Positions 22,167-49,839 of a stretch of 64,000 bases of DNA are shown here, piece after piece. A program made the translations under genes and the position numbers. The DNA is taken from assembly GCF_002549795.1 (NCBI RefSeq), contig NZ_CP021435.1:682001-746000 (forward strand). Reading direction: 5' to 3'. The notes under the pieces are model-generated. The model was given only the letters and a program-made list of their open reading frames with translations. It did no database searches and was not told where the DNA came from. This DNA comes from Halomonas beimenensis. Its GTDB lineage: Bacteria; Pseudomonadota; Gammaproteobacteria; Pseudomonadales; Halomonadaceae. Each line of letters begins with the position of its first letter. The stretch's first letter is position 1.

Positions 22167-23195
22167 ATGACGATCATGACTTCCCGTGCCGAGCTGCGCG
22201 AACAGCTGGCACGCACCTATTGCCCCACGCGCATTCCCGCCGAGGACGAGGCTCGCATCGAGGAGATCAAGCGACTCCTCGAGGCCCACAATGCCGTCCT
22301 GGTGGCCCACTACTACACCGACGATGCCATCCAGCAGCTGGCCGAGGAAACCGGTGGCTGCGTGGCGGACTCCCTGGAGATGGCCCGGTTCGGCGCCCGT
22401 CATCCGGCCGACACCCTGGTGGTGGCCGGGGTGCGCTTCATGGGCGAGACGGCCAAGATCCTCTCGCCGGAGAAGCGCGTGCTGATGCCCACCCTGGAGG
22501 CCACCTGCTCGTTGGACGTGGGTTGCCCGGCCGACGAGTTCAGCGCCTTCTGTGACGCCCATCCCGACCGCACCGTGGTGGTCTACGCCAACACCTCGGC
22601 GGCGGTGAAGGCCCGGGCCGACTGGGTGGTGACCTCCTCCATCGCGGTGGACGTGATCGAGCACCTCAAGGCTCGCGGCGAGAAGATCCTCTGGGCGCCG
22701 GACAAGCACCTGGGCGGCTACATCCAGAAGCAGACCGGAGCCGACATGCTGCTCTGGGACGGCGCCTGTATCGTCCACGAGGAGTTCAAGGCCAAGGGCG
22801 TCGAGGATCTCAAGGGCCTGTACCCCGAGGCGGCGGTGCTGGTGCACCCCGAGTCGCCGGCATCGGTGGTCGAGCTGGCCGACGTGGCGGGATCCACCTC
22901 CCAGCTGATCAAGGCGGCCAAGGAGCTGCCCCATGACAAGCTGATCGTCGCCACCGACCGCGGCATCTTCTTCAAGATGCAGCAGGCGGTGCCCGAGAAG
23001 ACCCTGTTCGAGGCGCCCACTGCCGGCAATGGCGCGACCTGCAAGAGCTGCGCCCACTGCCCCTGGATGGCGATGAACGCCCTGGACAACATGGCTGCCG
23101 CCCTGCGCGAAGGCTCCGGCGAGATCCAGGTGGACGCCGAGCTGCGCCAGGCCGCCCTCAAGCCGCTGCAGCGGATGCTGGATTTCAATTGCTAG
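22167..23195 (+). CDS. nadA: Quinolinate synthase
   Basis: Cytoplasmic [4Fe-4S] enzyme of 342 aa that condenses iminoaspartate with dihydroxyacetone phosphate to quinolinate in NAD synthesis. Cluster ligands are Cys114 ([10 protein letters not shown]), Cys201 ([11 protein letters not shown]) and Cys298 ([10 protein letters not shown]), matching the E. coli 113/200/297 set. [19 protein letters not shown] is the usual substrate-site block. Start 22167 or 22176 are both possible; the RBS is weak. nadC, the next enzyme, lies 9 kb away. The stop codon is part of a hairpin that begins a repeat element. Confidence 0.95.
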
Positions 23196-23315
23196 GCTTC
23201 GCCTAGAGCTTGAAGCTTGAAGAGCGGCGCTTCGCGCCTGGAAGCTGGAAGAAAAACCGCCCCTAGGCACTTGTCCTTGGGGCGGCTCGCTTTATGCTGC
23301 CTTCCAGCTTCCAGC
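23192..23315. repeat. Composite hairpin/heptamer element between nadA and bepA
   Basis: Order of parts: CTAGGC-TTC-GCCTAG hairpin containing the nadA stop codon (23192-23206); AGCTTGA twice (23207-23220); a conserved core with GGCGC-TTC-GCGCC (23226-23238) and GGAAGCTGGAAG; a terminator hairpin; then TTCCAGC twice (23302-23315) just before the convergent bepA stop. The purine-rich heptamers thus follow each gene's stop on its own sense strand. Closely similar elements occur at 45.0 and 49.6 kb. Confidence 0.85.
23252..23285 (-). terminator. Terminator between convergent nadA and bepA
   Basis: An 11-bp stem with one mismatch (CCGCCCCTAGG / CCTTGGGGCGG) and a 7-base loop. On the minus strand it is followed by TTTTT, making it a good intrinsic terminator for bepA; on the plus strand the tail is poorer. 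Confidence 0.8.
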
Positions 23316-23317
23316 TC

Positions 23318-24769
23318 TTACTCAAACTCCTCCAGCGTTTCCCGATAGCCGAGGAAGGCCTCGCGCCTCTGCGCGATGCGTCCGGCGGCATTGGCGTCGC
23401 CCTGGGCCTCCGCGACCTGCTCGGCCACCTCGAGCTGGCGGATGGCGCGGTCGATATGGCCGGTCAGCTGCAGGTGCTCGGCGCGGGCCAGGTGGCCCCA
23501 GGCTTCCCGGCCGCTGCGTCCGGCGGCCTCGGCCAGCAGGGTGAAGACCTGGGGATCCTCGGGACGACGGCCGGCCAGGTCGCGCAGCACGCGATAGGCC
23601 TCCTCGGGGTCACGCTGCAACAGAGCCTCGCCCAGCACCAGCCGGGCCGGGGCGTAGTCGGGAATCATGCGCAGCTGGCGCCGGGCGCGCTCGATGGCCG
23701 CGTCGATGCGGCCGGCGTCGAGCGCGACCTGGGCGGCGGAGACGGGCACCAGGGCCAGGTCCGGCAGGCTGGCGGAGAGCGCATCCAGGGCGGCGAGGGC
23801 GGCGTCGGTGCGGCCGCCGTCGGCATCGATCAGCGCCGCCAGGTAGCGCCGGGCGCTCTCCGAGGCCCCGCCACGTGCCAGGCGGGTGGCCGCCTGGCGC
23901 GGCTCCTGATCGTGGATGGCCAGGAGGGCCCGGGCCCGCACCAGCTGGTACTCGATGTCGTTCTCGCGTGGCGTGGTGACCCGGACCTGGTCGGCTCGCG
24001 CCTGGGCATCGCTGATCCGGGACTCGGTCACCGGGTGGGTGAGCAGGAATTCCGGCGGGGTGCCGCCCTGCAGGGCGACCATGTGCTGCATGGTGCGAAA
24101 CATCTCGACCATGGCCTGGGGATCGTAGCCGGCGTCGGCGAGGGTCTGCAGGCCCAGGCGATCGGCCTCGCGCTCGAAGCGCCGGGAATAGGCCAGCTGG
24201 TCCTGGAAGAGGGCGGCCTGGGAGCCCATGGCGGCGGCGATGCCGGCGTCGCCGCCGCCCCCGGCGGCGATCAGCATGCCGGCAAGCATGGCGGCCATGG
24301 CGGGGATGCGGGCCTGCTCGGCGCGCTCCTTGCCCCGTGCATAGTGGCGCTGGGAAAGGTGTCCCAGCTCGTGGGCGATCACCGAGGCCAGCGGCGCCTC
24401 GCCCTCGGCGAAGGCGAAGAGCCCGGCATTGACGCCGATCACTCCACCGGGCACCGCGAAGGCATTGAGCCGTTCGCTGGCCACCAGGGTGATCACCGGA
24501 TCGATGCCCCCCAGTTGGCTGTGGGGCAGCAGGCGCGCCACCAGGGACTCGAGGTAGTCCTGGGCGATGGGATCCTGCCAGAGCGGTGCCTGGGCGCGGA
24601 ACTGGCGCAGCCAGGCGCGCCCCAGGCGAACCTCTTCGCCGCTCACGGCCTGGGTATCGCCGGCGATCAGGCTGGGCAGGTCGGGCGTCTCGCTCTGGCC
24701 GAGGGCGGGGACGGCCAGAGCCAGGCTCAGGGCGAGGGCGGGAAGACAGGGCAGCAATCGACGCAGCAT
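23318..24769 (-). CDS. bepA: Outer-membrane-assembly metalloprotease BepA (M48, YfgC)
   Basis: Periplasmic M48 protease/chaperone of 483 aa that helps or degrades stalled LptD and other beta-barrel proteins. Signal peptide MLRRLLPCLPALALSLALAVPALGQ is followed by the protease domain with HELGH at 133-137 and the third ligand in FEREADRLG, then TPR-like helices from about 290 to the end. The ATG at 24769 is preferred over 24775 because GAGG has correct spacing only for the later one. It is divergent from the tusA-like gene. Confidence 0.92.
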   Translation of the reverse strand: MLRRLLPCLPALALSLALAVPALGQSETPDLPSLIAGDTQAVSGEEVRLGRAWLRQFRAQAPLWQDPIAQDYLESLVARLLPHSQLGGIDPVITLVASERLNAFAVPGGVIGVNAGLFAFAEGEAPLASVIAHELGHLSQRHYARGKERAEQARIPAMAAMLAGMLIAAGGGGDAGIAAAMGSQAALFQDQLAYSRRFEREADRLGLQTLADAGYDPQAMVEMFRTMQHMVALQGGTPPEFLLTHPVTESRISDAQARADQVRVTTPRENDIEYQLVRARALLAIHDQEPRQAATRLARGGASESARRYLAALIDADGGRTDAALAALDALSASLPDLALVPVSAAQVALDAGRIDAAIERARRQLRMIPDYAPARLVLGEALLQRDPEEAYRVLRDLAGRRPEDPQVFTLLAEAAGRSGREAWGHLARAEHLQLTGHIDRAIRQLEVAEQVAEAQGDANAAGRIAQRREAFLGYRETLEEFE

Positions 24770-24916
24770 GACCATCCTCGTCAGGGGGAGGGAACGGAAG
24801 CCGGAACCTTCCGACATTGATTCGGCCGGGAAAGTGCCTTTAAATCCCAAGCATTCATGTCGTTCGCGGTGGCGAGGCCGCGTCGGCATGCCTCTGGCAT
24901 TCTCCCGGGAGACATC

Positions 24917-25165
24917 ATGGCTGTGCAACCCGACGACGTCCTCGACGCACGGGGGCTCCCCTGTCCCTTGCCCCTGCTCAAGGCCAAGCAGGCGCTGTCG
25001 CGCCTCGCGCCGGGCCAGTTGCTCGAGGTGATGGCCACCGACGCGGGCTCATGGCGCGATTTCGAGACCTTCATCGACCAGAGCCCGCATGAGATGCCGG
25101 CTCGCGAGGAGCGCGGCGAGGTTTACCATTACTGGATCCGCAAGGGCGGGGAGTCGGCGTCATGA
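24917..25165 (+). CDS. TusA-family sulfurtransferase
   Basis: Small cytoplasmic sulfur-carrier protein (82 aa) of the SirA/TusA/YedF fold. The family signature D-A-R-G-L-P-C16-P-L-P holds the persulfide-forming cysteine. GGGAG precedes the ATG at 24917 with 6 bases between. It overlaps the downstream permease by 4 bases (ATGA), an arrangement common in gammaproteobacteria. Which sulfur pathway it serves is not evident. Confidence 0.88.
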   Translation: MAVQPDDVLDARGLPCPLPLLKAKQALSRLAPGQLLEVMATDAGSWRDFETFIDQSPHEMPAREERGEVYHYWIRKGGESAS

Positions 25166-26277
25166 CGCTGAGGGCGGTCCTGCGTAGCTGGGTCGACCAT
25201 TATTTCTCCGACGAGGAGGCGGTCATCCTGCTGGTGGTCCTGGTGCTGGGCTTCGCGGTGGTCATCTGGCTGGGCAAGATGCTGGCGCCCTTCCTGACCG
25301 CCCTGGTGATCGCCTTCCTGCTGCAGGGGGGCGTCAACGCCCTGACCCGGCGACGCATCCCTCACTTCCTGGCGGTGATGCTGGTCTACCTGGCCTTCCT
25401 GGGCGTCCTGCTCGCCATGGCTCTGGTACTGCTGCCGCTGATCTGGAACCAGTTGGTCAACCTGGTTCAGGAAACGCCGCGCATGTTCGCCAGCGGCCAG
25501 CAGCTGCTCGACGATCTTCAGGCTCGCTACCCGCAGCTGGTGACGCCGGATCAGATCCAGAACTGGATCGGCATGGCCGGCCGCGAGGTGACCCAGCTCG
25601 GCCAGCGGGCGCTGTCCCTGTCGCTGGCCTCGCTGGGCAATATCGTGGGGCTGATCGTCTACCTGGTGCTGGTGCCGATCCTGGTGTTCTTCATGCTCAA
25701 GGATCGCGACCGGCTGGTGAGCTTCGCGGTCTCCCTGCTGCCCCGGCAGCGCGGCCTGATGACCCGGGTCTGGCAGGAGATGGATGCCCAGATCGCCAAC
25801 TACGTGCGCGGCAAGGTGACCGAGATCGTCATTGTCGGCACGGTGTCCTTCTTCACCTTCGCCTTCTTCGGGCTGCCCTATTCGGCGCTTCTGGCGGTGC
25901 TGGTGGGGCTGTCGGTGCTGGTGCCCTACATCGGCGCCGCCGTGGCGACGGTGCCGGTGGCGGCGGTGGCCGGCTTCCATTTCGGCGTCGGCGACCAGTT
26001 CCTCTACGTGCTGATCGCCTACGGGGTGATCCAGGCGCTGGACGGCAACGTCCTGGTGCCGGTGCTGTTCTCCGAGGCGGTGAACCTGCATCCGGTGTCG
26101 ATCATCCTGGCGGTGCTGTTCTTCGGCGGCGTCTGGGGCTTCTGGGGGATCTTCTTCGCCATTCCGCTGGCCACCCTGCTCAAGGCGCTGGTCTATGCCT
26201 GGCCCCGCGGCATCCAGCAGCGGCGCCAGGAGGAGAAGGCCGCCCACCAGGATCAGGAGGTGGTCGAGGAGCCCTGA
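25162..26277 (+). CDS. AI-2E family permease (PerM-like)
   Basis: Membrane protein of 371 aa with about eight hydrophobic spans in the AI-2E/UPF0118 pattern; LIYLVLVPILVFFMLKDRD-type and NVLVPVLFSEAVNLHPVSIILAVLFFGGVWGFWGIFFAIPLA blocks are characteristic (quoted in part: NVLVPVLFSEAVNLHPV). Members have been described as autoinducer-2 exporters or sodium/proton antiporters, so function is open. Translationally coupled to the TusA-like gene. The C-terminal tail is charged. Confidence 0.88.
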   Translation: MTLRAVLRSWVDHYFSDEEAVILLVVLVLGFAVVIWLGKMLAPFLTALVIAFLLQGGVNALTRRRIPHFLAVMLVYLAFLGVLLAMALVLLPLIWNQLVNLVQETPRMFASGQQLLDDLQARYPQLVTPDQIQNWIGMAGREVTQLGQRALSLSLASLGNIVGLIVYLVLVPILVFFMLKDRDRLVSFAVSLLPRQRGLMTRVWQEMDAQIANYVRGKVTEIVIVGTVSFFTFAFFGLPYSALLAVLVGLSVLVPYIGAAVATVPVAAVAGFHFGVGDQFLYVLIAYGVIQALDGNVLVPVLFSEAVNLHPVSIILAVLFFGGVWGFWGIFFAIPLATLLKALVYAWPRGIQQRRQEEKAAHQDQEVVEEP

Positions 26278-26313
26278 GGCCGCCGTCGCCCCGGCGGCCC
26301 CTGGAGACCGGGC

Positions 26314-26790
26314 TCACTGCCCGGCATGCAGGGCCTGGGCGGCCTCCAGGACCTCGTCCGCGTGTCCCTTGACCTTCACGCCCCGCCATTCGCGGGCCAG
26401 CTTGCCGTCGGCATCGATCAGGAAGGTGCTGCGCTCGATGCCGAGATGCTCCTTGCCGTAGAGCTTCTTGAGCTTGATCACGTCGAAGAGCTTGCAGACC
26501 GCCTCGTCCTTGTCGGAGAGGAGGGGGAAGTTGAAGTCCTGCTTGGCCTTGAAGTTCTCCTGGGCGCGGATGCCGTCCCGGGAGACGCCGACGATGACGG
26601 TGTTGGCGGCGTCGAAGGCCGCCTTGCGGTCGCGGAAATCGCCGCCTTCGGTGGTGCAGCCGGGCGTGCTGGCCTTGGGGTAGAAGTAGATGACCACCTG
26701 TTGGCCGCGCAGCTCCGAGAGGGTCAGGGTGGTGTCGCCGGTGGCGGTGGCGGTGAAGTCGGGCACGGGCTGGCCGAGGCTGACGCTCAT
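26314..26790 (-). CDS. bcp: Thioredoxin-dependent peroxiredoxin Bcp (PrxQ)
   Basis: Cytoplasmic thiol peroxidase of 158 aa reducing hydroperoxides. The peroxidatic site is in YPKASTPGC45TTE. The resolving cysteine five residues later, as in E. coli Bcp, is replaced (Gly50); another cysteine at 99 (DEAVCKLF) may resolve, or the enzyme may be of the 1-Cys type. It is divergent from dapA and has a recognisable promoter (26823-26851). Confidence 0.92.
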   Translation of the reverse strand: MSVSLGQPVPDFTATATGDTTLTLSELRGQQVVIYFYPKASTPGCTTEGGDFRDRKAAFDAANTVIVGVSRDGIRAQENFKAKQDFNFPLLSDKDEAVCKLFDVIKLKKLYGKEHLGIERSTFLIDADGKLAREWRGVKVKGHADEVLEAAQALHAGQ

Positions 26791-26822
26791 GGGGATTCCT
26801 CCGGATGGGTGGCAAAGCCTCG

Positions 26823-26851
26823 ATTACACGCAACCGGCGCGCGACTGTAAA
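26823..26851 (-). promoter_or_regulatory. Sigma-70-like promoter of bcp
   Basis: On the minus strand TTTACA (26851-26846), a 17-bp spacer and TGTAAT (26828-26823) lie about 33 bp upstream of the bcp start. Confidence 0.65.
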
Positions 26852-26986
26852 GTCGCCGCTGTACAGGGTCTCGAGGCCTGAGTACCATTTGACCCCTGGC
26901 AGCGAGCCCGCAGGCGAGGGCGGGTATTCCCATGGCGATCGTGGCCCCAGCGGTCGCCCGGCAGGCAGCGAGAGGACAAGCAGAGG

Positions 26987-27871
26987 ATGATCACGGGTAG
27001 CATCGTCGCGCTGGCGACACCGATGAAGGTCAACGGCGATATCGACTGGGAGGCCCTGCGGGCCCTGGTCAACTTCCACCTGGACAATGGTACCGATGCC
27101 ATCGTCGCGGCGGGGACCACCGGCGAGCCGACCACCATGTCGTTCGCCGAGCACTTCGACGTGATCCGCGCCGTCGTGGAGGAAGTCGGCGGCCGCATCC
27201 CGGTCATCGCCGGCACCGGCGCCAACGCCACCTCCGAGGCGGTGGAGCTGGCCCGTTACGCCAGCGAGGTGGGGGCGGACTATTGCCTGTCGGTGTGCCC
27301 CTACTACAACAAGCCGACCCAGGAAGGCCTCTATCGCCACTTCAAGGCCGTGGCCGAGGGCAGCGAGTTGCCGGTGATCCTCTACAACGTGCCGGGCCGC
27401 ACCTGCTCGGATCTCTACAACGAGACCGTGCTGCGCCAGGCCCAGGTCGACAACATCGTCGGCCTGAAGGATGCCACCGGCAACCTGGAGCGCGCCGAGG
27501 ACCTGATCGCGCGCCTCAAGGGCAGCGACTTCATGCTCTACTCCGGCGACGACGGCACTGCCTGCGACTTCATGCTGATGGGCGGCCACGGTGACATCTC
27601 GGTCACCGCCAACGTCGCGCCCCGCGCCATGCATGAGCTGTGTGCCGCCGCCGTGGCGGGCGACAGCGAGAAGGCGCATCAGATCAACACCCGCCTGATG
27701 CCGCTGCACACCAACCTCGGCATCGAGGCCAACCCGATTCCCGTCAAGTGGGCCCTGCATCGCATGGGGCTGATCGAGCCGGGCATCCGCCTGCCCTTGA
27801 CCTGGCTTTCCGAGAAGTATCACTCCACCGTCAGCGAGGCCCTGCAGCTGGCCGGCCTGATCGATGACTGA
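26987..27871 (+). CDS. dapA: 4-hydroxy-tetrahydrodipicolinate synthase
   Basis: Lysine/diaminopimelate pathway aldolase (294 aa) condensing pyruvate with aspartate semialdehyde. Schiff-base Lys161 is in [14 protein letters not shown] (43-47), Tyr133 and Arg138 in YNVPGRT complete the active site. It opens the conserved gammaproteobacterial run dapA-bamC-MBL hydrolase-purC, all on the same strand with short gaps. Confidence 0.96.
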
Positions 27872-27916
27872 GCGGTGAGCCCGCCGCGACCTGGACAACT
27901 GGAGCAAGGTGGACGC

Positions 27917-28876
27917 ATGAGCTCTGCGCTGAAATGGATGCCGCTGGTGGCGACGCTGGCCCTGGCCGGCTGCGCGCGCGACGGCTACTTCGACGACCGT
28001 CGCGCCGACTACGTCGATGCCGAGGAGAGTGCGCCCCTGGTGCTGCCCGAGGGGCGCGACACGCGGCGCTATCGCGACGCCATGCCGGTCCCCGAGGCCA
28101 CGGGCGCCTTCGTCTCCCAGGGCGAGGAGTTCCGGGTGCCGCCACCCCGTGCGCTGGGCGCCGGCAGCGGCGTGGAACCCGGTGCCGTCGCCCGTCGCGA
28201 GGTGGGGGATCGCCGTTGGCTGGTGGTGGGTGCCGAGCCCAGCGCCGTCTGGTCCGAGCTCGAGCGCTTCGTCGAGGAGCGGGAGCTGGAAGTGGTGCGC
28301 CGCGACGCCTCGGCCGGCGAACTGGTGACGTCCCAGGCCCGCCTGAGTGTGCGACCCGGGCTGCAGCGCGGGGCCAGCGAGCTGCGTTGCGAGCAGGACG
28401 GGGCGCCGCTGGAGGGCTGCCTGCGTGCCCTGGCGCGGCGCTTCGAGGCTCGCGGCGCCACCGCCAGTGCCTCCTCCCTGGGGGTGCAGCGCCCCGAGGA
28501 CCGGGTCCGCCCGCGGCTCACCCGGGAGGGCGGCGAATGGCGCCTGGCAGTGCCCTTCGACCTGGAGCGCACCTGGGCCGAGCTGAGCTACCAGCTCGAG
28601 AGCGATTTCGCCGTGGCCGGTCGTCGCGAGCTGGTGGCCCGCGATGCCCAGGCCCATGCCTTCGTCGTCGACTACCTGACCCTGAGCGAGCGCAGCGCCG
28701 GCCTGCTGGGCGCCCTTACCAGCCTGGGCGGGGAAGCCCCCCAGCGCATTCGCCTGGTGCTGGAGGCCGCCGGCCCCGAGCAGAGCGTGCTGAGAGCCTT
28801 GCCCGCCGACGAGCGCGAGCTCTCCGCCGAGGACCGGCGTGAGCTGCTCGAGCGGGTGGCGGGCCTGCTGGGCTGA
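27917..28876 (+). CDS. bamC: Outer-membrane protein assembly lipoprotein BamC
   Basis: Lipoprotein component of the BAM complex (319 aa). A signal peptide ends in L-A-L-A-G-C with lipidated Cys20; the unstructured N-terminal segment with DYVDAEESAPLVLPEG, which wraps BamD, is followed by two helix-grip domains. RBS AAGGTGG precedes the ATG at 27917. It overlaps the MBL gene by one base. Confidence 0.9.
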   Translation: MSSALKWMPLVATLALAGCARDGYFDDRRADYVDAEESAPLVLPEGRDTRRYRDAMPVPEATGAFVSQGEEFRVPPPRALGAGSGVEPGAVARREVGDRRWLVVGAEPSAVWSELERFVEERELEVVRRDASAGELVTSQARLSVRPGLQRGASELRCEQDGAPLEGCLRALARRFEARGATASASSLGVQRPEDRVRPRLTREGGEWRLAVPFDLERTWAELSYQLESDFAVAGRRELVARDAQAHAFVVDYLTLSERSAGLLGALTSLGGEAPQRIRLVLEAAGPEQSVLRALPADERELSAEDRRELLERVAGLLG

Positions 28877-29676
28877 TGACGGCGGTGGTGCCCCCGGAGC
28901 CGGCCGCCGGCCGGCTGCACTATGCTTCCCTGGGCAGCGGCAGCAAGGGCAACGCGACCCTGGTCAGCGACGGCGAGACACGCCTGCTCGTCGACTGCGG
29001 CTTCGGCCTCAAGGAGACCGAGCGGCGACTGGCGCGTCTCGGCCTGCATCCCCGCCAGCTCGATGCCGTGCTGGTCACCCATGAACACGGCGACCATGTG
29101 CGCGGGGTGGGGCCGCTGGCGAGACGCCACGGGCTTCCGGTCTACCTTACCCCCGGGACCTGGCTGTCGGGCAGGCTCGGCGAGCTGCCGCACCGCCACT
29201 GGATCACGCCCCAGTCCTCGTTCTGCATCCAGGGCATCGACATCGACCCGGTCACCGTGCCCCACGATGCCCGGGAGCCGGTGCAGTTCCGCCTGGCCGC
29301 CGCCGGGCGTCGGCTGGGACTGCTGACCGACCTGGGGCACCCCAGCGAGCACGTCGTCGAGGCCTTCCAGGGCTGCGATGCCTTGATCCTGGAGTGCAAC
29401 CACGATGTCCACCTGCTGGAAACCGGCCCCTATCCGCCGAGCCTGAGGCGTCGGGTCGGCGGCCAGTGGGGCCACCTGGCCAACGCCCAGGCCGCCTGGC
29501 TGCTGCAACGCCTGGGGCTGGACCGCCTGCAGCGCATCGTCTGCTCGCACCTGTCCGAACACAACAATCGCCCCGAGCTGGCCCTGGAGGCCCTGACGCC
29601 CCTGCTCGACGGCGACCCCTCCCGCCTGACCGTGGCAGCCCAGGACCAGGGGCTGGACTGGCAGGCGATCACCTGA
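28876..29676 (+). CDS. MBL-fold metallo-hydrolase
   Basis: Metallo-beta-lactamase-fold hydrolase of 266 aa with THEHGDH at 68-74 and later ligands in TDLGHPS and CNHD. ASLGSGSKGNATLV is typical of the YycJ/WalJ-PhnP branch, often a phosphodiesterase or nuclease. Start overlaps the bamC stop (TGATG). Actual substrate unknown. Confidence 0.87.
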   Translation: MTAVVPPEPAAGRLHYASLGSGSKGNATLVSDGETRLLVDCGFGLKETERRLARLGLHPRQLDAVLVTHEHGDHVRGVGPLARRHGLPVYLTPGTWLSGRLGELPHRHWITPQSSFCIQGIDIDPVTVPHDAREPVQFRLAAAGRRLGLLTDLGHPSEHVVEAFQGCDALILECNHDVHLLETGPYPPSLRRRVGGQWGHLANAQAAWLLQRLGLDRLQRIVCSHLSEHNNRPELALEALTPLLDGDPSRLTVAAQDQGLDWQAIT

Positions 29677-29717
29677 GATTCCAGAATTCCATCTGACTGT
29701 TGCCTGTGGAGGCTCCC

Positions 29718-30431
29718 ATGGAAAAGCGCCAAGAACTCTATGCCGGCAAGGCCAAGTCGGTCTTCGCCACCGACGACCCGGATCGCCTGATCCTGCACTT
29801 CCGCGACGACACCAGTGCCTTCGACGGCCGGCGCATGGAGTCCCTGGCGCGCAAGGGCAAGGTCAACAACCGCTTCAATGCCTTCATCATGGGCAAGCTC
29901 GCCGAAGCCGGGATCCCGACCCACTTCGAGGAGCTGCTGTCCGACACCGAGTGCGTGGTGAAGAACCTGGACATGCTCCCGGTGGAGTGCGTGGTGCGCA
30001 ACATCGCCGCGGGCAGTCTGGTCAAGACCCTCGGCGTGGAGGAGGGCAGCGAGCTTGATCCGCCCACCTTCCAGCTGTTCCTCAAGAACGACGAGCTTCA
30101 CGATCCCATGATCAACGAGTCCCTGGCCGAAACCTTCGGCTGGGCGACCCCGGAGCAGCTGGCCGAGATGAAGGCCCTGACCTTCCGGGTCAACGAGGTG
30201 CTCAAGCAGCTGTTCGCCGATGGCGGCCTGCTGCTGGTGGACTACAAGCTCGAGTTCGGCGTCTTCCAGGGGCAGATCGTGCTGGGCGACGAGTTCTCGC
30301 CGGACGGTTGCCGCCTCTGGGACGCCGAGACCCGCGAGAAGCTCGACAAGGACCGTTTCCGCCAGGGCCTGGGCGGCGTGATCGAGGCCTACGAGGAGGT
30401 TGGGCGGCGCATCGGCGTCTCGTTCGACTGA
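29718..30431 (+). CDS. purC: Phosphoribosylaminoimidazole-succinocarboxamide synthase
   Basis: SAICAR synthetase (237 aa) of purine biosynthesis. [38 protein letters not shown] and VDYKLEFG are signature blocks. The ATG at 29718 has GGAGG 5 bases upstream. It ends the dapA-bamC-MBL-purC run and is followed by a heptamer repeat and a strong terminator. Confidence 0.95.
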
Positions 30432-30470
30432 CCGCCGCGTGGGCCGAAGGCGCCTCCGGCTTCGCGCAGC

Positions 30471-30494
30471 AAGTAACAAGTAGAAAGTAGAAAG
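30471..30494 (+). repeat. AAGTAGA heptamer tandem repeat after purC
   Basis: AAGTAAC, AAGTAGA, AAGTAGA, then AAG: three units of 7 bp, 40 bp after the purC stop and immediately before the terminator. Position and purine bias match the GGAAGCT heptamers at the other convergent junctions although the unit differs. Confidence 0.75.
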
Positions 30495-30498
30495 GAAC

Positions 30499-30530
30499 CC
30501 CCCACCGAACCACGAGTCCGGTGGGGGTTT
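30499..30530 (+). terminator. Intrinsic terminator of purC
   Basis: CCCCCACCG / CGGTGGGGG, a perfect 9-bp stem, followed by TTTCGCG. It lies about 70 bp past the purC stop. Confidence 0.85.
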
Positions 30531-30618
30531 CGCGTTGTAGGAAGGCGACCCTATCATCAGGGCCACCTCAATCGCCCAAGGCGTTTGAAGCCGCTGCCTG
30601 ATCAAGGTGTCTACTTTT

Positions 30619-30657
30619 TCAGGGCCACCTCACCACTCGCCACTCGCCACTCGCCAC
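30619..30657 (-). repeat. GAGTGGC-type heptamer repeat after trmO
   Basis: CCACTCG occurs three times in tandem plus a partial copy (30633-30657), i.e. CGAGTGG after the trmO stop on its sense strand. The preceding TCAGGGCCACCTCA (30619-30632) is a direct repeat of 30557-30570. Confidence 0.75.
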
Positions 30658-30681
30658 CGAGGGCATCGTCGTCTCCGGCCC

Positions 30682-40582: not shown

Positions 40583-41346
40583 GTCCCGCGCCCGTCGCCG
40601 TCGAAGGGGAGCCCGCCCTGGCCGAGCACTGGAGGCTTCCCGAGCGGGATGCGCCGGAGGGGGCCGAGGCCCCGCTGGTCCTGCGCCGGCAAGGCGGTCG
40701 CCTGGTGCTGGAAGGCGATTCCCGAGCCTACGGCAAGCCCCTGGCGGTGGACTTCGTCGAGGGCCGCGCGGCGCATCGACGCCGCTTCGGCGGGGGACGG
40801 GGCCAGCTGATCGCCCGTGCCTGCGGTTTTGCCAAGGGGGTGACGCCCTCGGTGGTGGATGCCACCGCCGGCCTGGGCCGTGACGCCTTCGTGCTCGCGA
40901 CCCTCGGCGCCGAGGTCCTGCTGGTCGAACGGGTGGCGGCCATCGCCGCCTTGCTGGAGGACGGCCTGAGTCGCGCCCGGGAGGCGCCCGAGACCACGGC
41001 CATCGCGGCCCGGATGCACCTCGTTCACGGCGACGCCGGCGAGCAGCTCGCTGCCCTGGTCGCCGAGGGCGGGGTGGCCCCCCAGGTGATCCACCTGGAT
41101 CCGATGTTTCCCCATCGTGAGAAGTCGGCGCTGGTCAAGAAGGAGATGCGCCTCTTCCGCACGCTGGCCGGCGACGATGCCGATGCCCCGCGGCTGCTGG
41201 AGGCCGCCCTGGACGTGGCGACTCACCGGGTGGTGGTCAAGCGACCGCGCAAGGCGCCCCCGATCGAGGGCCCGCCCCCGCGCCATGTGATCGAGGGCAA
41301 GACCAGCCGGTACGATCTCTACGTTCACCGTGCCCTGACCCCCTGA
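40579..41346 (+). CDS. rsmJ: 16S rRNA (guanine1516-N2)-methyltransferase
   Basis: Class I methyltransferase (255 aa) modifying G1516 of 16S rRNA. The [28 protein letters not shown]-terminal block, SAM motif [14 protein letters not shown], catalytic-site [19 protein letters not shown] and RYDLYVH ending match RsmJ (YhiQ). Coupled to tsaB by ATGA overlap; converges on plsB with 10 bp between. Confidence 0.93.
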
Positions 41347-41356
41347 GGCAGTCCCT

Positions 41357-43762: not shown

Positions 43763-43893
43763 CCGGTTGCCTGTGCGGTCAAGTGAGCGTCCAGTATAGC
43801 GAGGGAGGGAAGGGCGGGGCAGGGGGCGGACGACTTTTCCCGGACGGGGAAACGTGCGTCAATGAATTCCTCCATCGCGGCCAGGGAGGCGTC

Positions 43894-45015
43894 ATGCACG
43901 GCATGTGGCGAGACGGCAACCATTTCGAGTTGCTGCCCGAGGCGGCGCGGTTCCTGCCGGCCATGTTCGAGGCCGTGGAGGGGGCACGCCACTCGGTGCT
44001 CATCGAGCTCTACCTCATGGAATCCGGCCGCTTGGCTACCGCCCTGATCGAGGCGCTGTGCCACGCCGTCGAACGGGGCGTCACGGTGATGCTGTTGCTC
44101 GACGGTTATGGCGCCATGGGCCTCGAAACCGCGGATCGGCGTCGGCTGGAGGCGGGCGGCGTGGCCCTGCGCTGGTTCAACCCGCTGGGCCTGCATTCCC
44201 TGACACGCAACCTGACTCGGGATCACCGCAAGTTGGCCGTGATCGACGGCGAGGTGGCCTTCACCGGCGGCTTCGGCGTGGTCGACGACTTCCTGGATGC
44301 CTGGTACGAGGTGGCGATGCGCATCGAGGGGCCGGTGGTGGCCGACTGGATGCGGCTGTTCTCGAGCCTGTGGGATTCACCGATGAGCCGCGGGCCCGGG
44401 GATCCGAAGCTGGTGCACGGCCTAGGCGTGGTGAGCCGGTTTCGGGACGACTATCGGGGCATGCGGGGCCGGGTGGTCTGGGGGCAGGGCTATCGCTACC
44501 AGGCCATCCGCCACTCCCTGCAGCGTCAGGTGAGCGGGGCCTGTCGCCGGATCTGGATCTGTACCCCCTACTTCGTGCCCACCCTGAGCCTGCGGCTGCG
44601 ACTGGCCCGGGCCGCACGGCGTGGGGTGGAGGTCTGCCTGCTGCTGCCGGGCGACAGCCATGACCATCCCGGCGTCCGCTACGCCGGCCAGCGCTTCTAC
44701 GGTCGCCTGCTGCGCGCCGGGGTACGCATCTTCGAGTTCCAGCCCTCCTTCATCCACGCCAAGATCAGCCTGGCCGACGACTGGGTCAGCCTGGGGTCCT
44801 GCAACTTCGATCACTGGAGCCTGCAGTGGAACCTGGAGGCCAACCAGGAGGTGAGCGATGCGCGCTTCGCGGCCGAGGTGGCCGAGCTCTTCCAGCGCAA
44901 CTTCGCCGCCAGCCACGAGATCCACCACGAGGTCTGGGCCCGCCGGCCGCGCCTGCAGCGGCTGCGGGAATGGCTCTACGGCACTCTCGACGGGCTGCTG
45001 ACCCGATTACGCTGA
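43894..45015 (+). CDS. Cardiolipin synthase / phospholipase D-like protein
   Basis: PLD-superfamily protein of 373 aa with two HKD motifs: His111-x-Lys113-x4-Asp118 (DHRKLAVIDGEVAFTGGFG) and His288-x-Lys290-x4-Asp295 (FIHAKISLADDW). It is shorter than ClsA and lacks its N-terminal membrane spans, resembling ClsB (YbhO). The ATG at 43894 has GGGAGG 4 bases upstream; a GTG at 43783 in the same frame is less likely. The stop codon is the first triplet of a perfect hairpin opening a repeat element. Confidence 0.87.
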   Translation: MHGMWRDGNHFELLPEAARFLPAMFEAVEGARHSVLIELYLMESGRLATALIEALCHAVERGVTVMLLLDGYGAMGLETADRRRLEAGGVALRWFNPLGLHSLTRNLTRDHRKLAVIDGEVAFTGGFGVVDDFLDAWYEVAMRIEGPVVADWMRLFSSLWDSPMSRGPGDPKLVHGLGVVSRFRDDYRGMRGRVVWGQGYRYQAIRHSLQRQVSGACRRIWICTPYFVPTLSLRLRLARAARRGVEVCLLLPGDSHDHPGVRYAGQRFYGRLLRAGVRIFEFQPSFIHAKISLADDWVSLGSCNFDHWSLQWNLEANQEVSDARFAAEVAELFQRNFAASHEIHHEVWARRPRLQRLREWLYGTLDGLLTRLR

Positions 45016-45165
45016 CCCGGCTTCGCCGGGTCAAGCTTGAAGCCGGAAGAGCGGCGCTGCGCGCCTGGAAGCTCGAAGAAAGGGCTTGATACTCCTGCCA
45101 GGAAACTCAAGCTGATTTCCAGCTTCCAGCTTCCAGCTTCCAGCTTCCAGCTTCCAGCTTCCAGC
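45013..45165. repeat. Composite hairpin/heptamer element between cls and the UPF0149 gene
   Basis: TGACCCGGC-TTC-GCCGGGTCA (45013-45033), whose first three bases are the cls stop codon, is followed by AGCTTGAAGC, the core GGAAGAGCGGCGC-TGC-GCGCCTGGAAGC (quoted in two parts: GGAAGAGCGGCGC and GCGCCTGGAAGC), an imperfect hairpin (GCTTGA...TCAAGC) and seven tandem TTCCAGC units (45117-45165). The gene on the other strand ends 12 bp later. Confidence 0.87.
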
Positions 45166-45177
45166 TGCGCTCGGCGC

Positions 45178-45828
45178 TTAGCGCTTGCGCTTTCCGCCCC
45201 GCCCCGCGGGGGCCTTGCGGCGCGGCTTGGGCTTGGGCGTTTCCGGCGGCACCCGGTAGTGCAGGTAGAGGTCCAGCACCAGTTCGGGGAGCTGGGCCAC
45301 CAGGCTCTCCAGGCGGCGGCGATCATTGGCCAGCTCGGCCATGTCCGGCTCCTCGTCGAACAGGCCCGACAGCAGCATGAACGGCAGCAGCAGGGTGGCG
45401 GCGGCCTCCTCGTCCTCGGCGAACCAGGCCGTCTCGTCGAGGAAGACGCCTTCCATGAAGCCGGCACACCAGTCGCCGATGGGGGTCTCCTCCGGGGCGA
45501 GATCGCCGAGTTCCAGGTCGAAGGGCAGCTCGGGCAGTCCACCCGCTTCCAGGACCTCGATCGCGTTGCGCCGCAGTCGCTCCAGCAGCGCCAGCACCTC
45601 CTCGCGCTCGGCATCGCCGTCGAAGGCGGGTTCGCCGTGGAAGAGTTCCGCCACCCAGGTGGCGGGGGGCACGTCCCGGGGCGCCACGGCCAGGGCCACC
45701 AGGAAACCGTGGGCGCCGATCAGGTCCAGGGCATCGGCATCCACGCGCTCCGACGCCAGGAAGTCGTCGAGCCGGTCCAGGGCCTCGTCGTCGAGCAGGG
45801 GGTGGGGCTGGGGCTTGTCGTCTGACAT
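45178..45828 (-). CDS. UPF0149 (YecA/YgfB) family protein
   Basis: Cytoplasmic protein of 216 aa of the UPF0149 family: mostly helical, acidic, with LDGFLAS-type start (here LDDFLASERVDADALDLIGAHGFLVALA), and W-C-A-G-F-M-E-G-V. Function of the family is not established; some members carry a C-terminal SEC-C zinc motif, which is absent here. The C-terminus is a Lys/Arg tail (KPKPRRKAPAGRGGKRKR), which may bind nucleic acid. Confidence 0.88.
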   Translation of the reverse strand: MSDDKPQPHPLLDDEALDRLDDFLASERVDADALDLIGAHGFLVALAVAPRDVPPATWVAELFHGEPAFDGDAEREEVLALLERLRRNAIEVLEAGGLPELPFDLELGDLAPEETPIGDWCAGFMEGVFLDETAWFAEDEEAAATLLLPFMLLSGLFDEEPDMAELANDRRRLESLVAQLPELVLDLYLHYRVPPETPKPKPRRKAPAGRGGKRKR

Positions 45829-45898
45829 GGTTTGTTAACTCGCAGAAGTCTCGCGCGGGGCTTTACGCCATCGGAACGGGACGCCATTCTAGCATCCC

Positions 45899-46459
45899 AT
45901 GCCCTCGCCCGCGCTGCCCGATCCCGATAGCCGCTGGCTGGCCGCCCTCGACCGGGCGGCCAGCCAGCGGGTCCTGCACGACCGGGTAGAGGCCGCCTGG
46001 CGGCTGTGCCGGGAGTTCCACGACACTCTCCCCAGACCCCGCGTCTGGCTCGACCTGCGAGGCAAGGCCGCCGGCCAGACCCATTTCGGCCGCGGCGGCT
46101 TGCGCTTCAATCCCGTCCTCTTCGACGAGAATCGCCATGCCTTCCTGGTCGAGGTGGTGCCCCACGAGATGGCGCACTGGCTGGTGCATCACCTCGAGGA
46201 CGGCCACCGGGCGCGCCCCCATGGGCACGAGTGGCGCACGGTCATGCTCAGGCTGTTCGGCGTCCCGCCACGCACGACCCACCGCTTCGATACCGCCCGG
46301 TCGAGTCCCGCGCCCCATCGCTATCGTTGCGGCTGTCGGGAGCACGCCTTCACGTCGAGGCGCCATGCCCTGGTCGAGGCAGGGCGCGTCTATCGCTGCC
46401 GTCGATGTGCTCAGACCTTGGTCTATCTTGGCCGGCAAGTGTCTGGAACTCCTTCTTAA
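45899..46459 (+). CDS. SprT-family zinc metalloprotease
   Basis: SprT-like protein of 186 aa. Active site H89-E90-x2-H93 (VPHEMAHWLVHHL), followed by a zinc ribbon with C-x-C in YRCGCREH and C-x2-C in YRCRRCAQTL. HGHEWRTVM and THRF are conserved. Eukaryotic Spartan proteases of the same fold cut DNA-protein crosslinks; the bacterial role is unclear. Codons 11-24 form a perfect 17-bp inverted repeat (45931-45970). Confidence 0.9.
   Translation: MPSPALPDPDSRWLAALDRAASQRVLHDRVEAAWRLCREFHDTLPRPRVWLDLRGKAAGQTHFGRGGLRFNPVLFDENRHAFLVEVVPHEMAHWLVHHLEDGHRARPHGHEWRTVMLRLFGVPPRTTHRFDTARSSPAPHRYRCGCREHAFTSRRHALVEAGRVYRCRRCAQTLVYLGRQVSGTPS
45931..45970 (+). repeat. Perfect 17-bp inverted repeat inside the 5' end of sprT
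   Basis: CCGCTGGCTGGCCGCCC and its exact inverse complement are separated by 6 bases, 32 bp after the start codon. It would make a very stable hairpin early in the mRNA. Confidence 0.9.
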
Positions 46460-46485
46460 ACTATTGTTTTAAAAAAGAAAGCCGC

Positions 46486-46498
46486 TCATACCAATGTC
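46486..46498 (-). promoter_or_regulatory. Candidate regulator site upstream of acs
   Basis: On the minus strand GACATTGGTATGA differs by one base from GACCTTGGTATGA at 56982-56994 in the symporter/DUF294 intergenic region. It sits 122 bp before the acs start in an AT-rich promoter region. A downstream hairpin GCCGGCCG/CGGCCGGC (46548-46577) lies in the probable leader. Confidence 0.45.
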
Positions 46499-46620
46499 TA
46501 GAGGGAAGCCGGGGCGCCAGGGGTTTATGCTGAAATCACTTTATGGCGCCGGCCGGGCCAACAACAACGCGGCCGGCTTCATCAACCTGAAGGGGCCACC
46601 CCGAGGACAGAGGCATTTCC

Positions 46621-48569
<1,949 letters not shown>

Positions 48570-48570
<1 letters not shown>

Positions 48571-48724
48571 TGTGCGGCGGAATGATTGCTGCGCTCGACG
48601 ACCCATAGGGAATAAGGAAGCGCGCAGGTTCGTCGGGAACGAACCTGGCCAGCCTGGCTGCCGGCGGCAACCAGGCTGGGCGCCCCCGCCTATCTTCGCT
48701 CGCGACATCATTCCGCACGCACAT
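48570..48724 (+). ncRNA. Structured acs 3' region, possible small RNA or MITE-like element
   Basis: The region from the acs stop codon onward has an outer inverted repeat (48570-48586 with 48707-48724, 17/18 bp with one extra base), an inner perfect 9-bp hairpin CAGGTTCGT/ACGAACCTG (48625-48647) and a second hairpin CCAGCCTGG/CCAGGCTGG with a nested TGCC/GGCA stem (48649-48679). It is followed by a terminator at 48752-48778. No ORF of note. Could be a 3'UTR-derived RNA, a leaderless RNA gene or a small palindromic transposable element; sequence alone does not decide. Confidence 0.4.
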
Positions 48725-48751
48725 TCGATACGGTCATTGTGAAACTGACCG

Positions 48752-48778
48752 AGCCGGCCCGAGTGGCCGGCTTCTTTT
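48752..48778 (+). terminator. Intrinsic terminator after acs
   Basis: AGCCGGCC-CGAGT-GGCCGGCT, a perfect 8-bp stem followed by TCTTTT, 180 bp after the acs stop. Confidence 0.85.
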
Positions 48779-48918
48779 GGCCCGGTCTAGACTGTCGACA
48801 ATACCCGCCGAACGCTTGGGAATCGCCTCGGCCATGGGGTAACATGCCGTGACAGACTAAAGCGTCCCGCAGGCGGCGGTCGGCCCACCCCGCTGCTCCC
48901 GGAACCGGAGGAGAATCC

Positions 48919-49581
48919 ATGGCCTTTGCCCAGAAATTCATCGTCGCCGATGACCATCCGCTGTTCCGCGCGGCCCTGACCCAGGCGTTGCGCCAGGTGG
49001 CACCCCAGGCCGAGATCGTCGAGTCCGACACCATGGAGGCCACCACCGAGGTGGTCACCCGCCATCCGGACGCCGACCTCATCCTGCTGGACCTGCACAT
49101 GCCCGGGGCCCATGGCTTCTCCGGCCTGATCCAGTTGCGTGGCCAGACGCCGGACATCCCGGTGGCCGTGGTGTCCGGCAGCGACGAGCTCCACGTGGTG
49201 CGTCGCGCCATCGACTATGGCGCCTCCGGTTTCATTCCCAAGTCCTCCTCGCTGCAACTGATCGCCGAGGCGGTGGGCGAGATCCTCGACGGCGAGGTCT
49301 GGCTGCCCGCCGAGATGGCCGAGGCGCTGGGCGATGCCGACGAGGAGGAGACCCGCTTCGCCGAGGCCATCGCCTCCCTGACCCCCCAGCAGTTCCGGGT
49401 GCTGAACATGCTCACCGAGGGGCTGCTCAACAAGCAGATCGCCTACGAGCTCAATGTCTCCGAGGCCACCATCAAGGCCCACGTGACCGCCATCCTGCGC
49501 AAGCTCGGCGTGCATTCCCGCACCCAGGCGGTGATCGCCGCCCAGAAGCTCGAGGTGGAGCCGCCCAAGGTCGAGTCCTGA
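48919..49581 (+). CDS. crbR: LuxR-family response regulator (CrbR/ErdR type)
   Basis: Two-component response regulator of 220 aa: receiver domain with acidic pair Asp11-Asp12, phosphoacceptor Asp58 (LILLDLHMPG) and Lys108, then a LuxR/NarL helix-turn-helix from about 150 (LTPQQFRVLNMLTEGLLNKQIAYELNVSEATIKAHV). Its place between acs and a transporter-fused kinase identifies it as the probable CrbR (ErdR/AgmR-like) activator of acs. A weak promoter (TTGGGA, 18 bp, TAACAT) lies at 48816-48845. Confidence 0.85.
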   Translation: MAFAQKFIVADDHPLFRAALTQALRQVAPQAEIVESDTMEATTEVVTRHPDADLILLDLHMPGAHGFSGLIQLRGQTPDIPVAVVSGSDELHVVRRAIDYGASGFIPKSSSLQLIAEAVGEILDGEVWLPAEMAEALGDADEEETRFAEAIASLTPQQFRVLNMLTEGLLNKQIAYELNVSEATIKAHVTAILRKLGVHSRTQAVIAAQKLEVEPPKVES

Positions 49582-49641
49582 CCTTCGGTCAGGAGTTGGA
49601 AGAGCGGCGCTTCGCGCCTGGAAGCTTGAAGCTGGAAGAAC
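49576..49641. repeat. Composite hairpin/heptamer element after crbR
   Basis: TCCTGACC-TTC-GGTCAGGA (49576-49594) contains the crbR stop codon TGA. The core GGAAGAGCGGCGC-TTC-GCGCC and GGAAGCTTGAAGCTGGAAG follow directly. Same order of parts as at nadA and cls. Confidence 0.87.
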
Positions 49642-49680
49642 AACCGCCCCCAAGGCCATGCCGTGGGGGCGGTTTCATTT
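49642..49680 (+). terminator. Terminator between convergent crbR and crbS
   Basis: AACCGCCCCCA / TGGGGGCGGTT, an 11-bp stem with an 11-base loop followed by TCATTT; the flanking A and T make it usable from both sides. Confidence 0.85.
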
Positions 49681-49705
49681 ACGCTGCTGCCCAGCTTCCA
49701 GCCGA

Positions 49706-49793
49706 GTAGGCCGGATAAGCCCGCGATAGCGGGCGCATCCGGCGGGTAGGGGCGCCGTTGGCTGTCGGGTGCGCTGGCGCTTACCCGACCTAC
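49706..49793. repeat. Inverted pair of REP sequences (BIME-like)
   Basis: REP 1 (49706-49743) starts GTAGGCCGGATAAG and ends GCATCCGGC, close to the enterobacterial REP pattern; REP 2 (49764-49793, minus strand) starts GTAGGTCGGGTAAG and ends GCACCCGAC. Both have GTAG at their outer ends and a hairpin inside, and face each other, as REP pairs mobilised by REP-associated tyrosine transposases do. No such transposase gene lies in this window. Confidence 0.8.
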
Positions 49794-49797
49794 CGGC

Positions 49798-49839
49798 TTC
49801 CAGCTTCCAGCTTCCAGCTTGCGAGCTTACAGCTCGCGA
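49798..49839 (-). repeat. TTCCAGC heptamers and stop-codon hairpin after crbS
   Basis: Three TTCCAGC units (49798-49818) are followed by GCGAGCT-TAC-AGCTCGC (49821-49837), whose loop and arm include the crbS stop codon (49827-49829). Confidence 0.75.

What the first reader, a model, noticed from the sequence alone, without database searches (positions are those of the whole stretch)
23192..49839. Heptamer/terminator composite elements occupy every long convergent gene junction
At nadA/bepA (23192-23315), purC/trmO (30471-30657), cls/UPF0149 (45013-45165) and crbR/crbS (49576-49839), purine-rich 7-bp tandem repeats follow the stop codon of each converging gene on its own sense strand, with a hairpin or terminator between. 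Three sites share the unit GGAAGCT (up to seven copies, 45117-45165) and the core GGAAGAGCGGCGC-N3-GCGCCTGG; the purC/trmO site has unrelated units (AAGTAGA; CGAGTGG) in the same positions. The other convergent junctions here have gaps of 3-52 bp and lack it. The common position despite different units suggests a shared role at 3' ends (termination, RNA decay, or an insertion target) or a repeat family that is tolerated only there.
Basis: seen in the sequence. Interest (0 to 1): 0.75.

Follow-up and report, generated by a model that had tools for sequence, protein, structure and literature searches.

The report
Replication-oriented heptamer repeat elements
Salt-loving bacteria of the Halomonas family carry a repeated intergenic DNA element, found mostly next to gene ends, that in the window's genome and three close relatives almost always points the same way relative to the direction in which the chromosome is copied, so its seven-base repeat arrays are probably lengthened by the copying machinery itself.

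Summary
Genome-wide (1.2-Mb sample) it is an enrichment, not a rule: 12/52, 24/259 and 2/131. No other tested period behaves this way in gaps. The core hairpin recurs across Halomonadaceae with compensatory stem changes.

The controlling variable is replication, not transcription. In this chromosome the core is on the leading-sense strand at 19/20 sites; arrays of four or more AAGCTSS units have their purine strand on the other strand at 26/28 sites. The sense flips around dif. Convergent, leading-gene and lagging-gene contexts conform at 13/13, 8/10 and 5/5. Five other single-contig genomes: arrays 55/63, cores 22/25, strong in three of the same genus, weak in two of other genera. Orthologous junctions keep orientation while array unit and copy number change.

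I read it as a polar repeat element made or kept by lagging-strand synthesis and tolerated at gene 3' ends; this mechanism is inferred. An IS3-like element uses the arrays as landing sites; its remnant lies in the purC/trmO site.

The parts
23207..23222 (+). short purine heptamer arm (AGCTTGA), leading-sense side, nadA/bepA junction
23218..23241 (+). core hairpin TGAAGAGCGGCGC-TTC-GCGCCTGG (1 mismatch to the core)
23257..23285 (+). central terminator-like hairpin CCGCCCC...GGGGCGG
23301..23316 (-). second heptamer arm, CTTCCAG on + (GGAAGCT on -), 2.3 copies
30470..30494 (+). short purine heptamer arm (AAGTAGA) at purC/trmO
30495..30531 (+). central terminator-like hairpin ACCCCCCACCG...CGGTGGGGGTTT
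   Evidence: (z -2.99)
30571..30632 (.). 62-bp remnant, 100% identical to the end of an IS3-like element that sits in heptamer arrays elsewhere in this genome
30629..30657 (-). longer arm, CCACTCG on + (CGAGTGG on -)
45013..45033 (+). 9-bp stem with TTC loop that includes the stop codon of the cls-like gene
45045..45068 (+). core hairpin, exact
45117..45166 (-). expanded array, 7 copies; CTTCCAG on +, purine strand on - (lagging-sense)
49598..49621 (+). core hairpin, exact
49618..49638 (+). short purine arm after the core (CTGGAAGCTTGAAGCTGGAAG)
49644..49672 (+). central terminator-like hairpin CCGCCCCCA...TGGGGGCGG followed by TTTCATTT
49706..49793 (.). REP/BIME-like pair (GTAGGCCGGATAAGC...GCTTACCCGACCTAC) lying inside this copy of the element
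49796..49820 (-). second heptamer arm, CTTCCAG on +, 3.6 copies

Best explanation
This is an intergenic repeat element of the Halomonadaceae whose orientation follows replication-fork direction in the window's genome and its close relatives, and its heptamer array is probably lengthened by slippage during lagging-strand synthesis. Layout, read along the leading-sense strand: [short purine heptamers with GC hairpins, including the GGCGC-N3-GCGCC core] - [A-rich block, then CCCTTG or a terminator] - [pyrimidine heptamers, up to about 28 copies]. Shown: recurrence in the family, stem compensation, orientation flip around dif in several genomes, independence from gene direction, and variable array unit and copy number at orthologous junctions. 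Inferred: the core arm lies on the lagging-strand template with the array 3' of it, so Okazaki synthesis would copy the array first and make its purine strand; slippage there would expand arrays in this orientation only. Also inferred: whatever first places the element acts on that same single strand, which would give the core its fixed orientation, and survival near gene 3' ends would reflect selection against hitting promoters.
For: Own genome: dnaA at 271, dif-like site at 1911847 (24 of 24 bases), cumulative GC-skew maximum near 1.96 Mb. Core leading-sense at 19/20 sites (<=2 mismatches). Arrays of >=4 AAGCTSS units, start-anchored so each counts once: 15/15 on - right of dif, 11 + and 2 - left of it, so 26/28 (reversed-pattern control 1 match). 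The anchor misses some arrays: four more in the sample (2370333, 2580493, 2981275, 2982261) also conform. Eight sites carry core and array, so 40 sites, 37 conforming, p = 2e-8; counting 3114020 and 3115336 as one IS-split array, 36/39, p = 4e-8. Five other single-contig genomes with dnaA and dif located: arrays G137 15/16, G163 24/26, G074 10/10, G071 4/6, G097 2/5; cores 7/8, 10/11, 1/1, 3/3, 1/2. Central-block motifs in the sample: 13 intergenic copies leading, 1 lagging. Gene direction does not set it: the 28 arrays sit at 13 convergent, 10 leading-gene and 5 lagging-gene gaps, and 13, 8 and 5 conform. Period 7 only. Core hairpin: 117 of 123 sites fully paired, six different stems; 22 of 28 distinct inserts paired against a mean of 9.4 (maximum 15) with shuffled partners. 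Orthologous junctions: array copies 7.1 (CTTCCAG) / none detected / 5.7 (CTTCCCT); 14.1 / none; 8.3 / 12.3; 9.4 / 7.4 / 4.3; 4.6 (CTTCCCT) / 13.1 (CTTCCAG), orientation the same in all 8 scorable orthologues, three of which lie on the other chromosome arm.
Against: No experiment shows slippage or fork-coupled placement; polarity is a correlation. Slippage alone does not explain why cores without long arrays are also oriented. Roughly 50 nt of central block separate array and core hairpin, so a stall at the core would have to act at a distance. Polarity is weak in two genomes of other genera (G071 4/6, G097 2/5), and in G097 the reversed control pattern gives almost as many matches (4) as the pattern (5). 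In the looser sample set only 19 of 26 long period-7 arrays of any unit conform. Exceptions: own core 3002119 and arrays 2165298 and 2167817; cores in G137 at 1618574 and G163 at 2316067 (these two share flanking sequence and look like one locus) and in G097 at 1260444. Genomes are related, so sites in different genomes are not independent; four of the G163 arrays share an identical flank. Left and right arms of one element match each other only slightly better than shuffled pairs (13.87 versus 13.44 of 22).
Confidence: 0.55

Rival explanations
1. A miniature mobile element placed by a transposase acting on single-stranded lagging-strand template or through the sliding clamp; insertion direction sets orientation and the arrays are passengers.
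For: Presence or absence at the same cls/UPF0149 junction: stop codons overlap by 4 bp in G020, G014 and G039; the element is present in the window genome and, with a different heptamer, in G012. Three core units 70 bp apart in G205. IS608/ISDra2 insertion into the lagging-strand template is described as well documented (PMC6006769, passages). REP tandem arrays in P. fluorescens SBW25 are forward near 2 Mb and reverse near 4 Mb (PMC3116915, passages).
Against: No Y1 transposase (PF01797) in the window genome, G137 or G163. None of the 12 fetched Y1 loci (of 26 matches in 30 genomes) has the core; the best has 6 mismatches. No target-site duplication or sharp element ends were found. Other transposase families were not searched.
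Confidence: 0.25
2. A selected bidirectional 3'-end module (terminator, RNA stability), with orientation a by-product of gene strand bias.
For: Convergent enrichment and near-absence from divergent gaps; terminator-like hairpins at three of the four window sites; arms read as purine-rich RNA from both genes.
Against: Only 12 of 52 long convergent gaps in the sample have arrays. At convergent sites gene strand gives no preferred direction, yet 13/14 cores and 13/13 arrays are replication-oriented. All 5 lagging-gene array sites keep replication orientation, and both own cores between lagging genes (1153055, 2947018) are antisense to their genes. Terminator scan of 44900-49950 found 2 sites against a mean of 2.5 in shuffles.
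Confidence: 0.12
3. A fork-management signal: the hairpin cluster is read on single-stranded lagging-strand template (priming, restart or pausing) and orientation is kept by selection.
For: Hairpin conserved by compensatory changes, consistent orientation in several genomes, and orientation kept across arm changes.
Against: Copies are missing from orthologous junctions in many relatives, and only 77 of 250 family genomes have the core at <=1 mismatch, so no single site looks essential; the arm changes seen would keep polarity anyway if they are symmetric inversions.
Confidence: 0.08

Closest known systems
GGGAATC heptamer repeats of Xanthomonas and GGGGA(T/C)T repeats of Nostoc (PMC4692102; passages, section 10)
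   Same: 7-bp tandem units, mostly intergenic, 2-26 copies; in Xanthomonas 70-75 inverted plus/minus pairs per genome; closer to the 5'-side ORF; fewer between divergent (7-8%) than convergent ORFs (16%).
   Different: Xanthomonas repeats are reported to show no leading/lagging preference and form G-quadruplexes; here arrays and core are oriented 26/28 and 19/20, the main units (AAGCTSS) have no run of three G, and a conserved hairpin core and central block accompany them.
TAACTGA direct repeats of Beggiatoaceae, Cyanobacteria and Bacteroidetes (PMC4679880; passages read)
   Same: Intergenic 7-bp direct repeats in many copies. In a Microcystis sample, eight sets between stop codons all had one chromosomal orientation, which the authors left open.
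   Different: Single fixed unit, mostly just upstream of start codons in the main genome; the passages read describe no core hairpin.
REP / BIME / REPIN elements (PMC3116915, PMC6006769; passages read)
   Same: Short intergenic hairpin repeats in many copies; some tandem arrays in P. fluorescens lie in opposite orientation at about 2 and 4 Mb.
   Different: No GTAG tag at the core, no RAYT/Y1 gene in this genome, heptamer arrays instead of paired REPs. A REP-like pair is a separate insert at 49706-49793.
IS200/IS605 single-strand transposons (PMC6006769; passages read)
   Same: Insert into lagging-strand template, recognise subterminal hairpins.
   Different: No transposase gene associated, no ends defined.
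Bordetella repeated element BRE (PMC3110155; passages read)
   Same: GC-rich intergenic repeat of about 85 bp, many copies.
   Different: Reported as not co-oriented with the replication fork.

Membership tests
Xanthomonas/Nostoc-type heptamer SSR | 7-bp tandem unit over-represented in intergenic DNA | tested here: met
   lag 7 stands out from lags 4-13 in gaps; 7 lag-7 runs of >=9 in 1.02 Mb of coding sequence (where lags 6, 9 and 12 dominate)
Xanthomonas/Nostoc-type heptamer SSR | G-tract unit able to form G-quadruplex | tested here: not met
   the 28 arrays are AAGCTSS, at most GG; some minor units do hold GGG (CTTCCCT, CCCGTAG read on the other strand)
Xanthomonas/Nostoc-type heptamer SSR | no leading/lagging preference (as reported for Xanthomonas) | tested here: not met
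   26/28 arrays oriented; paper statement
REP/REPIN | GTAG (or CGTC) tag next to the palindrome | tested here: not met
   core flanks read GGAAGA...TGGAAG; the tag rule itself from the title and abstract listing of PMC3733652
REP/REPIN | RAYT (Y1 transposase) in the genome | tested here: not met
   0 matches to PF01797 in the window genome; none in G137 or G163
IS200/IS605-type miniature element | orientation tied to the lagging-strand template | tested here: met
   (weak in G071 and G097)
IS200/IS605-type miniature element | related transposase, defined ends, excision or insertion events | tested here: inconclusive
   no core near Y1 genes in 12 fetched loci; empty junctions exist but ends were not defined
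Intrinsic terminator | GC stem followed by a U-run | tested here: inconclusive
   one scan hit in the element at 49660; folds support three of four central hairpins; a number of copies show no such hairpin by eye

The most novel reading that the evidence does not exclude
The element is written and rewritten by the replication fork: lagging-strand synthesis at a hairpin cluster copies and extends heptamer arrays, so every copy is a lasting record of fork direction in the chromosome, and the hairpin core may be a working signal on lagging-strand single-stranded DNA.
Probability: 0.25. Interest if true: 0.85.

Novelty: new variant of a known kind. Interest (0 to 1): 0.66.

Why it matters
Heptamer arrays are known from unrelated bacteria without an accepted reason for the period or the location. 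A family in which array orientation flips around dif (here between 1.79 and 1.98 Mb), whatever the direction of the neighbouring genes, ties such repeats to DNA replication and makes orientation-dependent slippage in bacteria testable at natural loci. Practically, array orientation could mark replication direction and chromosomal inversions in genomes of the window's genus, and the arrays are candidate VNTR typing markers and IS landing sites.

Tried and rejected
Sigma-70 promoter reading of the central block (TTGAC-N16-TATGCT): seen by eye in a few copies; by pattern only 3 of 97 public copies fit at spacing 16, 3 at 17 and 1 at 20, subfamily B lacks it by eye, and the scan found none in 44900-49950. 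Rejected.

Stop-codon hairpins (post-stop sequence an inverted copy of the gene end): striking at 45013-45033, but 4 of 54 heptamer-bearing ends versus 19 of 525 others with stems >=6 is not a clear excess. Not claimed.

Rfam: only two tRNAs in the window at gathering threshold.

RAYT/REP mobilisation: no Y1 gene in the window genome; 15 of 30 relatives have a Y1 match, 12 loci were fetched and none has the core nearby.

Arm-to-arm matching: small excess over shuffling in 61 elements, but related sequences are not independent.

Most subscription journals are not held, so absence there is not shown. Passages only were seen of PMC6749651 (heptamer satellites elsewhere, no mention of Halomonas). 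Gomez et al. 2014 on transposon orientation and the sliding clamp was seen only as a reference-list entry in PMC6006769 and is not held.

Genomes G221 (20 contigs) and G177 (40 contigs) were dropped from the polarity count because they are not single contigs and their dnaA and dif positions on scaffolds are doubtful; taken at face value each would add one conforming and one exceptional core. Cores in other multi-contig genomes (the list was capped) were not scored, as fork direction is unknown there. One search missed loci L051-L099 through a naming slip and was redone.

Full report
WHAT WAS CHECKED. The four junctions were read directly. Arrays, core and central hairpins are present as described. 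A codon-usage gene finder trained on 1.2 Mb of the same genome reproduces the convergent junctions, and family searches support the gene names, some below curated cut-offs. The window is 682001-746000 of a single-contig 4.05-Mb genome. All four convergent gaps of >=100 bp in the window have lag-7 arrays; none of 12 co-directional and 8 divergent gaps of that size do.

CHANCE AND FREQUENCY. In 60 evenly spaced 20-kb stretches, uninterrupted lag-7 runs of >=9 number 14 in convergent, 21 in co-directional and 2 in divergent gaps, against 0-5 for each other lag from 4 to 13; coding sequence has 7 in 1.02 Mb. Counted by gaps of >=100 bp: 12/52 convergent, 24/259 co-directional, 2/131 divergent. So the enrichment is real, but 'every long convergent junction' is true of the window only.

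THE FAMILY. The exact core is found in 95 stretches of named genomes; the 80 listed rows are Halomonas, Chromohalobacter, Salinicola, Litchfieldella, Billgrantia, Onishia and Modicisalibacter, all genera of Halomonadaceae. At <=1 mismatch it is in 77 of 250 family genomes, 9 of 24 genera. Of the 97 public copies, 80 have both neighbours called: 47 convergent, 33 co-directional (13 sense, 20 antisense to the genes), 0 divergent; 16 are at locus edges and 1 lies inside a called gene. In the relatives one core (G137 914795) lies in a 1,097-bp gap called divergent. The core stem is conserved as a structure: 117 of 123 sites matching GAAGA-N15-TKGAAG have a full 5-bp stem, with six different stems (most are GGCGC because the public loci were selected for it); 22 of 28 distinct inserts pair, against a mean of 9.4 and maximum of 15 with shuffled partners.

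TWO SUBFAMILIES, ONE LAYOUT. Subfamily A: AGCTTGAAGCT-core-GGAAGCTGGAAGAAAACCCTTGAC...ATGCTGCC(TTCCAGC)n. Subfamily B: GCGCCGAGCTACAAG...GCCCTTCGGGC...CAAGGAAACCCCTTG...CACTGCC(TTGCAGC)n (by eye). Both have a purine arm with hairpins, an A-rich block leading into CCCTTG or a terminator-like stem, and a pyrimidine arm that can be long. Central-block motifs in the sample: 13 intergenic copies leading-sense, 1 lagging-sense, 2 genic. Whole-element RNA folds at two window sites are more stable than all 200 shuffles (z -3.6 and -4.1), as expected from inverted arms.

REPLICATION POLARITY. dnaA lies at 271 and a dif-like site at 1911847, with the cumulative GC-skew peak nearby. Core, <=2 mismatches: 13/13 on + right of dif, 6/7 on - left of it. 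Here 'right' means the arm from dnaA at 271 up to dif and 'left' the arm beyond dif. Arrays with >=4 AAGCTSS units, start-anchored so that each counts once: 15/15 on - in the first arm; 11 on + and 2 on - in the second. The last array before dif is at 1.790 Mb and the first after it, of the other sense, at 1.980 Mb. The anchored pattern misses some arrays; four others seen in the sample (2370333, 2580493, 2981275, 2982261) conform. Eight sites carry both features, so 40 sites, 37 conforming (p = 2e-8); 3114020 and 3115336 flank one IS and are probably one split array, which gives 36/39 (p = 4e-8). A looser set, all period-7 arrays of >=4 copies in the sample whatever the unit, gives 19 of 26 in the same sense.

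INDEPENDENCE FROM GENES. In the replication frame the 28 array sites comprise 13 convergent, 10 with both genes leading and 5 with both genes lagging; 13, 8 and 5 conform. In the conforming leading-gene cases the purine strand is antisense to both genes, in the lagging-gene cases sense to both. Gene strand therefore does not set the orientation.

OTHER GENOMES. With dnaA and dif mapped on single contigs: arrays G137 15/16, G163 24/26 (20/22 if four copies with an identical flank are left out), G074 10/10, G071 4/6, G097 2/5; cores 7/8, 10/11, 1/1, 3/3, 1/2. The first three are of the window's genus. Polarity is strong there and weak in the two others; the reversed control pattern gave 2, 5, 0, 1 and 4 matches, so for G097 the array count says little. 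(The reversed pattern also fits CGAAGCY arrays, so it is a severe control.) The core exceptions in G137 (1618574) and G163 (2316067) share flanking sequence and look like one old locus.

TURNOVER. In the 20 regions fetched from relatives, ten core sites match an own site by both flanking proteins. Eight of them lie in genomes with mapped dnaA and dif, and all eight have the same orientation relative to replication, also the three on the other arm (counterparts of own 1980564, 2947018 and 811442); symmetric inversions would keep polarity by themselves. Right-arm copies differ: cls/UPF0149 7.1 here, none detected in G163, 5.7 of CTTCCCT in G191; crbR/crbS 3.6, 10.4, 2.7; own 1358384 8.3 against 12.3; own 1980564 14.1 against none; own 2947018 9.4, 7.4, 4.3; own 811442 4.6 CTTCCCT against 13.1 CTTCCAG. 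In other relatives the cls/UPF0149 genes overlap by 4 bp with no element, and G019 carries about 17 copies of another heptamer there.

MECHANISM. Shown: fixed internal polarity, fork-linked orientation, array variability, hairpin conservation, scarcity in divergent gaps. Inferred: the pyrimidine arm is copied during Okazaki synthesis before the hairpin arm, and slippage there would lengthen arrays only in this orientation; the element's own orientation implies that it is placed through the same single strand. Single-strand transposition is the main rival; it lacks a transposase candidate. A termination role may coexist, but does not explain orientation.

IS LANDING SITES. A 1.26-kb IS with rve and HTH_Tnp_1 proteins (IS3-like by recall of that domain pair) abuts or splits arrays at 2592056, 3114020/3115336 and 3537990, and both copies of its end found in the 1.2-Mb sample (one of them the 3114020 copy, the other near 2982300) lie next to arrays. 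The purC/trmO site contains 62 bp identical to that end (30571-30632), so it looks like a decayed landing site.

PRIOR WORK. Xanthomonas heptamers share period, intergenic place and inverted pairs but are reported without leading/lagging preference (PMC4692102, section 10). TAACTGA repeats show an unexplained common orientation in a small Microcystis sample (PMC4679880, passages). The Bordetella BRE repeat is reported as not co-oriented with the fork (PMC3110155, passages). I found no paper on this element in the searches named under Tried and rejected.

'Never' in divergent gaps was softened, the copy numbers were recounted, the number of paper searches was corrected, and the control and the looser count were added to the evidence against.

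Noticed in passing
window 30571-30632; genome 2592056, 3114020-3115336, 3537990, about 2982300: An IS3-like element (rve and HTH_Tnp_1 proteins, 1.26 kb; one copy 99.8-99.9% identical to two others) sits in or beside heptamer arrays; a 62-bp identical end piece remains in the purC/trmO site.
   Followed up: partly
window 49706-49793: A REP/BIME-like pair (GTAG-tagged) lies inside the crbR/crbS copy of the element, although the genome has no PF01797 match; 5 REP-like sites by one pattern in the 1.2-Mb sample.
   Followed up: partly
genome 2165298 and 2167817: The only two exceptional AAGCTSS arrays lie 2.5 kb apart, both between leading genes; possibly a local rearrangement.
   Followed up: no
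L267 (G205 C107:21309-21472): Three core units in tandem at 70-bp spacing, so the core arm itself can duplicate.
   Followed up: no
L266 near 6484 (G191, crbR/crbS orthologue): Part of the array there has period 8 (CAGCTTTC) next to a run of N; the unit length can change at an orthologous site.
   Followed up: no
window 30557-30570 and 30619-30632: Direct repeat TCAGGGCCACCTCA, the second copy being the end of the IS remnant; could be a duplicated IS end or target.
   Followed up: no
window 45013-45033 and 23192-23206: Stems with a TTC loop that include the stop codon of the upstream gene; not clearly enriched in the sample.
   Followed up: yes
genome 1151519 (convergent gap, L163): Twelve-copy GAAGCCC array with purines on the leading-sense strand, an exception among the long arrays of other units.
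   Followed up: no
genome 1904366 and 2231771: The two divergent gaps of the sample with lag-7 arrays have other units (TACGTAA and TGGCCCT) and may be a different kind of repeat.
   Followed up: no
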